Of a stretch of DNA of 64,000 bases, positions 33,136 to 39,087 are shown in pieces (position 1 is the stretch's first letter; each line of letters starts with the position of its first letter). Origin of the DNA: Peptoniphilus phoceensis (GTDB lineage Bacteria > Bacillota > Clostridia > Tissierellales > Peptoniphilaceae). Under the pieces are notes generated by a model, which saw only the letters and a program-made list of their open reading frames with translations, ran no database searches and was not told where the DNA came from. Made by a program: the position numbers and the translations under genes. The stretch covers positions 1 through 64,000 of the forward strand of contig NZ_LN999806.1 in the NCBI RefSeq assembly GCF_001517665.2, read 5' to 3'.

Positions 33136-33164
33136 TTGACTTCTTTCTGCTAGTAATGTAAACT
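33136..33164 (+). promoter_or_regulatory. Probable sigma-A promoter of tnaA
   Basis: TTGACT at 33,136-33,141 and TAAACT at 33,159-33,164, spacing 17 bp. It would start the RNA near 33,171, directly before a hairpin (GATAAT-ACAT-ATTATC) and the tandem units. Confidence 0.5.
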
Positions 33165-33170
33165 ATTTCA

Positions 33171-33315
33171 TAGATAATACATATTATCTTGGAGTTCTGA
33201 CCGCTCATCAAGAAAGAAATTTTTAAAATTTTGATAACCGGGGTTCTCTATAGGATACTGTCCGCTAGTCGACTTTTGTCGATGACCGGGGTTCCTCTAT
33301 AACTTTTTTTATTTT
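33171..33315 (+). ncRNA. Tandem structured leader RNA of the tryptophanase operon, candidate riboswitch
   Basis: Two related units follow each other without a gap: 33,191-33,252 and 33,253-33,301. Both contain CCGCU, then an arm, a loop and the complementary arm, then ACCGGGGUUC and UCUAUA. The inner arms differ in sequence but each pairs (AUCAA with UUGAU; UCGAC with GUCGA). CCG can pair with CGG in both, and in unit 2 UAUAGGA pairs with UCCUCUAUA. A U-tract (33,304-33,310) follows unit 2, so it could work as a terminator. I cannot match it to a riboswitch class I know. Position predicts a ligand linked to aromatic amino acids, by inference. Confidence 0.6.
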
Positions 33316-33331
33316 TATATGGAGGTTTTTT

Positions 33332-34975
33332 ATGAAAAAGTATCAATTAGACGTACCTATACCACATTCCTACACTTATGTTACAAAGAATATTCCAAAT
33401 GTAACTGTGGAACAAAGAGAAAGAGCCCTAAAGGCTACTCACTACAATGAATTTGCTTTCCCTGCAGGAATGTTAACTATCGATATGTTATCTGACTCAG
33501 GAACTACTGCCATGACAGATGTTCAATGGTCTGCAATGTTTTTGGGTGATGAATCTTATGGAAGAAACAAGGGCTACTATGTTCTCTTAGATACCTTTAG
33601 AGATGTCTTTGAAAGAGGCGACGATCAAAAGAGAATTATTGACCTAGTTAGAACTGACTGCGACGATGTTGAAAAAATGATGAACGAAGTTTACCTTTGC
33701 GAATATGAAGGTGGACTATTTAACGGTGGCTCTGCACAAATGGAAAGACCTAATACTTTTATCATCCAACAAGGTCGTGCAGCAGAATCAGTTTTATTTG
33801 AACTTGTAAGAAATATTTTAAATGCAAGAGAACCAGGAAAGACTTATACTATTCCTTCAAATGGACACTTTGACACAACTGAAGGAAATATTAAACAAAT
33901 GGGATCTATCCCAAGAAACTTATACAATAAAGAACTTTTGTGGGAAGTTCCTGAAAATGGTCACTATGAAAAGAATCCATTTAAGGGCAACATGGACACA
34001 AAGAAATTGGAAGAATTAATTGAAAAATTAGGACCAGAAAATGTTCCTCTAATTTATACAACTATTACAAACAACACAGTTTGTGGTCAACCAGTTTCTA
34101 TGGCAAACATGAGAGAATGTTCAAGAATTGCTCACAAATATGAAATACCTTATATGTTTGATGCTGCAAGATGGGCAGAAAATGCTTACTTCATAAAAGT
34201 TAATGAAGAAGGCTACGCTGACAAATCAATCCCAGAAATTGCAAAGGAAATGTTCTCTTATTGTGACGGTTTTACTGCTTCTCTTAAAAAAGATGGACAC
34301 GCAAACATGGGTGGCGTTCTTGCCTTTAGAGATAAGGGATTATTCTGGAAGAAGTTCTCTGACTTTAACGAAGACGGATCAGTTAAAACTGATGTAGGTA
34401 TTTTATTAAAGGTTAAACAAATTTCTTCTTACGGAAATGACTCCTATGGTGGAATGAGTGGTAGAGATATTATGGCACTTGCTGCTGGTCTTTATGAAGC
34501 AGCTAAGTTTGATTATCTTGATGCCCGTGTTAAACAATGTGAATACCTTGCACAAGGATTTTACAAAGCTGGCGTAAAAGGCGTTGTACTTCCTGCTGGT
34601 GGCCACGGTGTTTACATCAACATGGACGAATTCTTCGACAATAAGAGAGCACCAGAAACTTTTGCTGGTCAAGGTTTCTCTGTTGAATTAATTAGACGTT
34701 ATGGAATTAGAACTGCAGAACTAGGCAACTATTCAATGGAATATGATTTAAAAACTCCAGAACAACAAGCTGAAGTGGCAAACGTAGTTCGTTTTGCAGT
34801 AAACAGAAGTCAACTTTCTAAGGAACACATGGATTATGTAATTGCAGCTGTAAAGGCTCTTTATGAAGATCGTGCTACTATTCCTAATATTAGAATAGTA
34901 AAGGGTAAAAACCTTCCAATGCGTCACTTCCACGCTTTCCTAGAAACTTATGAACCTTCTGAAGATGAAAAATAA
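33332..34975 (+). CDS. tnaA: Tryptophanase family lyase (tryptophanase or tyrosine phenol-lyase)
   Basis: 547 residues, PLP-dependent beta-eliminating lyase. The PLP lysine lies in SLKKDGHANMGG (K319/K320), preceded by FDAARWAENAYFI with the cofactor-binding aspartate and arginine. Typical neighbours are ITNNTVCGQPVSM and the C-terminal IRRYGIRTAELG. Family members are usually 455-475 residues; this one has about 75 extra, partly in the region around residues 75-140 and in the C-terminus. Tryptophanase is preferred because an NSS transporter of TnaT type follows; tyrosine phenol-lyase activity cannot be excluded. Ribosome site GGAGG. It yields indole, pyruvate and ammonia for energy. Confidence 0.88.
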   Translation: MKKYQLDVPIPHSYTYVTKNIPNVTVEQRERALKATHYNEFAFPAGMLTIDMLSDSGTTAMTDVQWSAMFLGDESYGRNKGYYVLLDTFRDVFERGDDQKRIIDLVRTDCDDVEKMMNEVYLCEYEGGLFNGGSAQMERPNTFIIQQGRAAESVLFELVRNILNAREPGKTYTIPSNGHFDTTEGNIKQMGSIPRNLYNKELLWEVPENGHYEKNPFKGNMDTKKLEELIEKLGPENVPLIYTTITNNTVCGQPVSMANMRECSRIAHKYEIPYMFDAARWAENAYFIKVNEEGYADKSIPEIAKEMFSYCDGFTASLKKDGHANMGGVLAFRDKGLFWKKFSDFNEDGSVKTDVGILLKVKQISSYGNDSYGGMSGRDIMALAAGLYEAAKFDYLDARVKQCEYLAQGFYKAGVKGVVLPAGGHGVYINMDEFFDNKRAPETFAGQGFSVELIRRYGIRTAELGNYSMEYDLKTPEQQAEVANVVRFAVNRSQLSKEHMDYVIAAVKALYEDRATIPNIRIVKGKNLPMRHFHAFLETYEPSEDEK

Positions 34976-38588: not shown

Positions 38589-39012
38589 TGTTTTAAGATA
38601 TCCGACTAGCTTGATTTCAGTGTGAAATCATTTAAAAAGACAGCCGTTTTATGGCTGTCTTTGTTTAGGTTTTTTCTTGATTTACAAGTCCGACTCGCTT
38701 AAAAATGCTCATTATTCATTCGCATTTTTTTCGCTCGCTGGATAAGCTTCAGTGTGAAGATAAAAAAAGACAGTCACTTTATGACTGCCTTTGCTAAAGT
38801 TTTCTCTATATATCCAAGTCCGACTCACTCGACAATGCTCCCTATTCGGTCGCATCGTCTTCGTTCGCTGGATAAGCTTCAGTGTGAAGATAAAATAAAA
38901 GACAGCCTTTTTTTTAGCTGTCTTTGATAAGGTTGTTTTTAGATTTACTAGTCCGACTCGCTTAAAAATGCTCATTATTCATTCGCATTTTTTTCGCTCG
39001 CTGGATAAGGTT
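38589..39012. repeat. Array of about 130-bp composite repeats
   Basis: Three core copies (about 38,687-38,759, 38,817-38,889 and 38,950-39,012) contain TCCGACTCRCT, then an inverted pair around ATGC...GCAT, then CGCTGGATAAG. They alternate with short hairpins of the form AAGACAGYC...GGCTGTCTT (38,636-38,664, 38,767-38,793, 38,899-38,924). The core recurs at 62,266 and 62,704. There is no gene in 38,523-39,096; the frame on the minus strand at 38,712-38,975 is read-through of repeats. Confidence 0.85.
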
Positions 39013-39057
39013 CTTCATAGCTTCAGGCTCCTTTCAGTCGCCTTCAGCTTGAAGACC

Positions 39058-39087
39058 GTCTCAATCGTGATTCGTCACGATTGAGAC
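39058..39087 (-). terminator. Hairpin after groEL
   Basis: Perfect 13-bp stem with a 4-nt loop (TTCG on the plus strand) starting 9 bp beyond the groEL stop. The T-run is missing, so it is an atypical terminator or a 3'-end stabiliser. Confidence 0.65.

What the first reader, a model, noticed from the sequence alone, without database searches (positions are those of the whole stretch)
33171..33315. Tandem conserved stem-loop units in the leader of the tryptophanase operon: candidate new riboswitch or attenuator
Seen: two adjacent units (33,191-33,252 and 33,253-33,301) share CCGCU, ACCGGGGUUC and UCUAUA, while the arms between them differ in sequence but keep pairing (AUCAA/UUGAU against UCGAC/GUCGA). 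This is covariation inside one leader. A U-tract follows the second unit, and a -35/-10 pair places the RNA start just before a further hairpin at 33,173-33,188. Known: tandem aptamers occur in glycine and some guanidine riboswitches; tna control in E. coli uses a peptide, TnaC, and no such peptide is visible here. Inference: a tandem aptamer that senses tryptophan, indole, tyrosine or a related compound and controls termination or translation.
Basis: partly seen in the sequence, partly recalled or inferred. Interest (0 to 1): 0.87.

Follow-up and report, generated by a model that had tools for sequence, protein, structure and literature searches.

The report
Likely natural tryptophan riboswitch before tryptophanase
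A small folded RNA at the start of the message for a tryptophan-degrading enzyme, found in dozens of anaerobic bacteria, looks like a natural tryptophan sensor, and its predicted binding pocket resembles one that chemists evolved in the test tube twenty years ago.

Summary
The two units are real. They belong to a structured RNA absent from Rfam whose confirmed members all precede tryptophanase genes (tnaA), apart from one locus with a tnaA remnant and one cut by a contig end. Model searches gave 28 of 249 order genomes at E<=0.01, all 28 before tnaA, and further tnaA leaders in the class and phylum. Of 80 listed pattern matches in named genomes, 50 precede tnaA and 1 a remnant. A second unit was seen in only 12 of 67 loci; the tandem is a lineage feature.

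Core: two short helices round a bulged G, a 3x3 internal loop CYA/RAC, and a covarying stem. The following segment can pair with the Shine-Dalgarno site. Forming the aptamer raises predicted site exposure more than with shuffled linkers. Best reading: a translational ON riboswitch for L-tryptophan. Loop plus unpaired G match the in vitro selected L-Trp site of Majerfeld and Yarus, whose CYA/GAC consensus I recall and could only partly check.

Ligand binding is inferred, not shown. No natural tryptophan riboswitch was seen in the papers searched.

The parts
33136..33164 (+). probable promoter: -35 TTGACT, 17 nt spacer, -10 TAAACT; RNA start expected near 33170
   Evidence: similar TTGAC...TAAACT seen by eye upstream of the Peptoniphilus and Anaerococcus relatives' units
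33172..33189 (+). short 5' hairpin of the leader
   Evidence: predicted fold
33190..33252 (+). unit 1: aptamer-like unit with loop CUC/AAC (33204-33206 / 33236-33238), P2 CCG/CGG 33201-33203/33239-33241, P3 33207-33211/33231-33235
   Evidence: model R3 hit 33190-33250, E 8e-7
33253..33301 (+). unit 2: complete aptamer. P1 GGA/UCC + ACU/GGU (33253-33259 / 33290-33295), bulged G33260-U33261, P2 CCG/CGG 33262-33264/33287-33289, loop CUA/GAC 33265-33267/33284-33286, P3 33268-33273/33278-33283
   Evidence: E 1.6e-24; E 6.3e-20; both models include this unit or close copies
33294..33301 (+). anti-Shine-Dalgarno CCUCUAUA; shares CC 33294-33295 with P1
33318..33325 (+). UAUGGAGG: Shine-Dalgarno region, pairs with 33294-33301 in the predicted unconstrained fold
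33332..34975 (+). tryptophanase TnaA, long type (547 aa)
   Evidence: NF009709 610 bits; PDB 8sl7 'Tryptophanase' 1022 bits
35053..36393 (+). NSS-family sodium-dependent transporter, perhaps for tryptophan
   Evidence: NF037979, 71 bits; substrate inferred

Best explanation
The leader carries a riboswitch for L-tryptophan that switches on translation of tryptophanase. Without tryptophan the segment after unit 2 (CCUCUAUA) pairs with the Shine-Dalgarno region and hides it. Tryptophan binds in the 3x3 internal loop (CYA/RAC) with help of the nearby bulged G and stabilises the outer helix P1. P1 takes back the first bases of the anti-Shine-Dalgarno segment, so the ribosome site opens and TnaA, perhaps with the following transporter, is made. 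Shown by computation: the conserved structure, its linkage to tnaA, and the two competing predicted folds. Inferred: ligand identity, direct binding and direction of control. In Peptoniphilus and some Anaerococcus two units sit in tandem, perhaps for a steeper response (inference).
For: Location: 28 of 28 order genomes with E<=0.01 have it directly before tnaA. In the named-genome scan 50 of 80 listed matches precede tnaA and 1 precedes a tnaA remnant plus the transporter; 1 is cut by a contig end; for 28 no TnaA or NSS protein starts within 400 bases and they are taken as chance. It occurs before two very different TnaA types (long; short: L048, L049, L055, L242, L244). Enzyme: of 50 downstream TnaA proteins, 48 show Asp and 40 show Leu or Ile at sites where tyrosine phenol-lyase has Thr and Arg (site roles recalled), and 39 end in RHF where it has Phe; the rest are cut short or, once, my motif search landed elsewhere. 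Structure: 95.4% of cells paired, 59 double-change cells against 18.4 in shuffles, 0 of 500. Outer P1 pair 2 holds in 49 of 52, shuffle maximum 48; pair 3 in 43 of 52, reached by 28 of 1000 shuffles. Switch: the anti-SD/SD duplex beats 95% of shuffles in 39 of 65 leaders. Forcing the aptamer raises predicted SD exposure by more than 0.1 in 37 of 64 leaders and lowers it in 3. With the linker shuffled the mean gain falls from 0.178 to 0.034, and 56 of 64 leaders exceed the median gain of their own shuffles. Window: 0.01 to 0.35, a gain reached by 0 of 15 shuffles. Pocket: CYA/GAC in 56 of 74 and CYA/RAC in 65 of 74 aligned units, the bulged G in 74 of 74 (partly fixed by the search patterns). 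Among the 30 of these units not from the named-genome scan: CYA/GAC 15, CYA/AAC 8, CUC/AAC 7. Published descriptions of the selected Trp site: a required flanking G of variable position, and Trp anticodon triplets in Trp sites (PMC5492135, passages); a Trp riboswitch construct containing CG-CCA-stem-GAC-CG (PMC11126579, passages).
Against: No binding or expression data. 10 of 36 long tnaA leaders in the family lack the motif, as do the 27 fetched leaders (of 28) of short TnaA/TPL-type genes in the family. 26 of 65 leaders do not pass the anti-SD test; L048, L049, L055, L104 and L109 show no convincing pairing, and L039, L040 and L048 go the wrong way in the accessibility test. Of the covariation measures, the number of pairs with a double change is not above shuffles (5 against 4.3, 185 of 500), and A4 was fitted to the structure. 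Unit 1 has CUC/AAC, not CYA/GAC. The published construct's minimum-energy fold (-14.0 kcal/mol) is not the CYA/GAC fold (-7.1), so the pocket match rests on sequence and on recalled literature.
Confidence: 0.75

Rival explanations
1. A riboswitch of the same architecture that senses another compound of the pathway: indole, tyrosine, an indole derivative or pyridoxal phosphate.
For: Gene context does not single out tryptophan. Loop variants (CUC/AAC, CCU/GAC) could mean altered specificity.
Against: An ON switch before a catabolic gene fits the substrate better than the product. The pocket resembles a selected Trp site. PLP would be expected before other PLP genes too; confirmed members were only at tnaA or its remnant (some weak or unlisted hits were not inspected). 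The enzymes look tryptophanase-type, not TPL.
Confidence: 0.13
2. A binding site for a regulatory protein (antiterminator or translational regulator) rather than a metabolite aptamer.
For: Small hairpins with conserved internal loops, sometimes in tandem, are also protein targets (for example ribonucleic antiterminators; recalled).
Against: No regulator gene was noticed next to tnaA in the window, where only four neighbours were identified by family. Conserved loop and helix bases plus a bulged G resemble a known small-molecule site. Protein partners were not searched for.
Confidence: 0.08
3. A TnaC-like leader-peptide or transcription-attenuation system in which the hairpins are only attenuator parts.
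For: E. coli tna works by TnaC (described in PMC9071393, passages). A T-tract follows unit 2.
Against: No leader ORF of the window contains Trp (other leaders not checked). No terminator-like site at the T-tract. Conservation lies in RNA loops and a covarying stem.
Confidence: 0.04

Closest known systems
In vitro selected L-tryptophan RNA site (Majerfeld and Yarus 2005; Majerfeld et al. 2010; neither paper held here)
   Same: 3x3 internal loop CYA/GAC closed by a CG pair, plus an essential unpaired G nearby (loop consensus recalled; required G and anticodon triplets read in PMC5492135; CCA...GAC sequence read in PMC11126579).
   Different: Natural and conserved; fixed bulged G three base pairs from the loop; near-invariant P2 CCG/CGG; tied to a predicted Shine-Dalgarno switch; variants AAC, CUC and CCU exist.
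E. coli tna operon control by the TnaC peptide
   Same: Tryptophan-induced tryptophanase (proposed here).
   Different: No Trp-coding leader ORF in the window; RNA structure is what is conserved.
trpB motif riboswitch candidate SRC-39-1 (PMC11109978)
   Same: Orphan candidate in Firmicutes linked to tryptophan or amino acid genes.
   Different: Described as at least two hairpins with a terminator, before trpB or an ABC transporter (passages); alignment not available to compare.
opuB motif riboswitch candidate (PMC11109978)
   [quoted passage not shown] passages).
   Different: Different gene association; its structure was not compared here.
Glycine riboswitch (tandem aptamers, ON switch for catabolic genes; recalled)
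   Same: Amino-acid catabolism; tandem units in some species.
   Different: No RF00504 match at the motif; different core and single copies common.

Membership tests
riboswitch (general) | conserved structured RNA in the 5' leader of metabolic genes, with covariation | tested here: met
   covariation lies in P3 and outer P1, while P2 and inner P1 hardly vary
riboswitch (general) | expression platform with mutually exclusive folds | tested here: met
   predicted only: and the linker-shuffle control (56 of 64 leaders above their own shuffles); not met in every leader
riboswitch (general) | direct, selective ligand binding and ligand-dependent gene control | not testable with these tools
   needs in-line probing, calorimetry, reporters
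selected L-Trp aptamer (CYA/GAC + G) | symmetric internal loop CYA/GAC | tested here: met
   exact in 56 of 74 aligned units and in 15 of the 30 not from the named-genome scan; exact in window unit 2, not in unit 1; the consensus itself is recalled
selected L-Trp aptamer (CYA/GAC + G) | essential unpaired G near the loop | tested here: inconclusive
   a G is conserved in 74 of 74 units and unpaired in the model; that it is the required G is inference
selected L-Trp aptamer (CYA/GAC + G) | binds L-Trp | not testable with these tools
   -
any Rfam 15 family | score at or above gathering threshold | tested here: not met
   0 in the window; in 12 relatives' loci only a glycine riboswitch away from the motif
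TnaC-type leader peptide | leader ORF with Trp codon | tested here: not met
   5 possible starts in the window leader, none codes Trp
trpB motif (SRC-39-1) | two hairpins with intrinsic terminator before trpB or ABC transporter | tested here: inconclusive
   gene context differs; alignment not compared

The most novel reading that the evidence does not exclude
The first natural tryptophan riboswitch class, whose pocket is the same CYA/GAC-plus-G site that in vitro selection gave as the simplest L-Trp binding RNA, including the CCA anticodon triplet of tryptophan in 30 of 74 aligned units. Nature and the test tube would have reached the same minimal amino-acid site, and cells still use it.
Probability: 0.65. 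Interest if true: 0.95.

Novelty: new variant of a known kind. Interest (0 to 1): 0.88.

Why it matters
I know of no published natural riboswitch for tryptophan (recall), and none was seen in the paper searches (open-licence PubMed Central only, listings mostly, passages of 14 papers). A sensor this small is easy to test and would explain how anaerobes that carry it (Oscillibacter, Flavonifractor, Agathobaculum, Dysosmobacter, Peptoniphilus and others) tune tryptophanase and so indole output. If the pocket equals the selected Trp site, it makes a long-argued question directly testable: whether simplest amino-acid sites with anticodon triplets occur and function in living cells.

Tried and rejected
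Rfam class: none. The 7 weak hits (SpR08, rli60, snoZ101 and others) lie far below gathering scores, 5 of 7 on the other strand.

Transcription terminator after unit 2: not found by the simple scan.

Leader peptide: no Trp codon in the window leader ORFs.

Hits taken as chance after a look at their surroundings (no tnaA follows): L006 (left out), L052, L053, L056-L060, L243, L245-L248, L254 from viral contigs. Taken as chance by script only, not one by one: 28 of 80 loci. Not inspected: G088 and G207, the second hit of G109 (E 0.067), L249-L252, and the 38 stretches that were not listed. Plasmids: no match to the leader DNA.

Ribonucleic antiterminator (LicT/SacY type): a loose likeness from memory; not tested.

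Rows and loci left out. Alignment A4 was made from 67 loci; same-species duplicates (for example L075, L077, L092, L094, L106, L111, L119, L122, L133, L136) were not given. A4 also lacks the unit 1 copies of the window, L009, L011, L013 and L017, which that search did not return; L011 unit 1 has a broken P2, so 'P2 in 74 of 74' leaves out a known exception. One search used 65 loci; L093 and L114 have no usable tnaA start. One search used 14 chosen loci for R2. A1 held 12 chosen units, and its structure was drawn from them.

Full report
Observation. The window leader contains two adjacent hairpin units as described. ACCGGGGTTC occurs only there in 64 kb. A promoter-like pair precedes them and tnaA starts at 33332. 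Folding energy alone is unremarkable (z -1.63), so the case rests on comparison.

Gene. The protein is a tryptophanase of the long type. Its best solved relative is 8sl7, 'Tryptophanase'. Where tyrosine phenol-lyase has Thr, Arg and Phe at three selectivity sites (recalled), this family has Asp, Leu/Ile and His. Of 50 downstream proteins, 48 show the Asp, 40 the Leu or Ile and 39 the final RHF; the others are cut by contig ends, except one (L118) where my search landed on an inner RHF. An NSS transporter follows in the window.

Distribution. An exact two-block pattern hit 16 of 130 family genomes: 15 are tnaA leaders, 14 of them with two units by eye, and G071 is not a leader. A covariance model (R1, 12 units) hit 32 of 249 order genomes at E<=0.1. 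The 28 genomes at E<=0.01 all have the motif directly before tnaA; of the four weaker ones two were looked at and are not leaders. A second model (R2) hit 12 of 391 class genomes: seven strong ones before tnaA, five weak ones not. A third (R3) hit 12 of 398 phylum genomes: the own genome and two of another family (L242, L244) before tnaA, one hit at E 1.4e-4 that is not before tnaA (L243), and eight weaker ones, of which the four looked at are not either. A search of 45 genomes of that other family found only those two. Of these 80, 50 precede tnaA, one (L093) precedes a tnaA remnant and the transporter, one (L114) is cut by the contig end, and for 28 no such gene follows. Genera include Peptoniphilus, Anaerococcus, Murdochiella, Levyella, Oscillibacter, Flavonifractor, Agathobaculum, Dysosmobacter, Butyricicoccus and [Clostridium] aminophilum. 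In the own genome R3 finds only these two units up to E 10.

Not universal. Of 36 long tnaA genes in the 130 family genomes, 26 carry the motif and 10 do not. The 27 fetched leaders (of 28) of short TnaA/TPL-type genes there lack it. With the full model and filters off the lowest E-value in these 37 loci was 1.8.

Anatomy. Aligned units (A4, 74 matches from 67 loci) share ACU-G-N-CCG, then C-Y-A, a variable stem, R-A-C, then CGG-GGU. P2 CCG/CGG is identical in 74 of 74, and the G after ACU is present in 74 of 74; one unit outside A4 (L011 unit 1) breaks P2. Stem P3 covaries: 59 cells with both sides changed against 18.4 in shuffles (0 of 500), and slid pairings fall to 54.7% paired or less. 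The count of pairs with any double change (5 against 4.3) is not above shuffles, and A4 was fitted to the structure. In the first, unfitted alignment the result was alike: 15 double-change cells against 5.1, 0 of 500; 3 pairs against 2.1, 152 of 500. Outer P1: pair 2 in 49 of 52 single-type units (shuffle maximum 48), pair 3 in 43 (28 of 1000 shuffles as high), pair 4 in 19 (not above chance). P2 and the inner P1 are supported by conservation only, apart from A-U to G-U changes and a U-G to C-G change in L242 and L244. Loop types: CCA/GAC 30, CUA/GAC 26, CUA/AAC 9, CUC/AAC 7, CCU/GAC 2. Part of this is fixed by the search patterns. In the 30 units not from the named-genome scan: CUA/GAC 12, CUA/AAC 8, CUC/AAC 7, CCA/GAC 3. 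A second unit was seen in 12 of the 67 loci; weak second units may be missed.

Switch. Directly after the aptamer comes a pyrimidine-rich segment (CCUCUAUA in the window) that can pair with the Shine-Dalgarno region. The duplex is better than 95% of shuffles in 39 of 65 leaders, mean z -2.07; leaders are related, so these are not 65 independent tests. Five leaders show no convincing pairing (L048, L049, L055, L104, L109). Forcing P1 and P2 raises predicted Shine-Dalgarno exposure by more than 0.1 in 37 of 64 leaders, lowers it in 3 (L039, L040, L048), and changes it little in 24; medians 0.04 and 0.21; median cost 4.0 kcal/mol, which a ligand could pay (inference). Control: with the linker between aptamer and Shine-Dalgarno shuffled (15 per leader) the median free exposure is 0.26 instead of 0.04 and the mean gain 0.034 instead of 0.178; 56 of 64 leaders gain more than the median of their own shuffles. 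In the window exposure goes from 0.01 to 0.35; none of 15 shuffles gains as much, though 3 of 15 are hidden as well. In the window's free fold P2 and P3 persist and P1 is lost to the anti-SD helix; in 17 of 64 leaders P2 too is predicted to be rarely formed (probability under 0.1). This points to translation turned on by ligand.

Ligand. Tryptophanase is catabolic, so an ON switch suggests its substrate. The internal loop matches the selected L-Trp site, which I recall as CYA/GAC with an essential unpaired G at flexible distance. The original papers were not held. What I could read: a required flanking G of variable position, and Trp anticodon triplets in Trp sites (PMC5492135, passages); a published tryptophan riboswitch construct with CG-CCA-stem-GAC-CG (PMC11126579, passages). 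Against over-reading: that construct's predicted fold differs from the loop form, and the second construct in the same paper does not show the signature by eye.

Prior reports. Searches for a tryptophan riboswitch or tnaA motif listed artificial riboswitches and other work; I opened passages of 14 papers. One of 2007 says that no tryptophan riboswitch was predicted in the bacteria it studied (PMC2245857, passage). The trpB motif of PMC11109978 differs in described structure and genes (passages). Subscription papers and preprints were not searched, so a report may exist.

Verdict. A genuine cis-regulatory RNA class of tryptophanase genes, new to Rfam, most likely an L-tryptophan riboswitch. Structure and linkage are well supported; ligand and direction are inferred.

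Noticed in passing
L067 (reverse strand, match 1755-1815) and L121 5722-5783: Two Oscillibacter leaders carry an extra upstream copy with loop CCU/GAC followed directly by a T-tract, so its P1 could act as a terminator stem; possibly a second, opposite control.
   Followed up: partly
L002, L003, L008, L012, L014 (unit 1): Unit 1 of several Peptoniphilus and Anaerococcus leaders is 26-38 nt longer than the window's, with a similar stretch in its P3 arm (CUAAUYUACAAUCA or close) and, in some, a second copy of the UUGAUA arm that could compete for pairing.
   Followed up: no
L093: Pseudoflavonifractor sp.: tnaA seems reduced to a short remnant between the motif and the NSS transporter.
   Followed up: partly
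window 33332-34975: Long-type tryptophanase of 547 aa, 80 aa longer than the E. coli chain of 467.
   Followed up: partly
window 38705-39084: Two short ORFs with the same start (MLIIHSHFFRSLDK) about 260 bases apart: an intergenic repeat next to a GroEL-like gene.
   Followed up: no
L067 6756-6859 (-): A glycine riboswitch aptamer (RF00504) on the same contig as a tandem copy of the motif.
   Followed up: no
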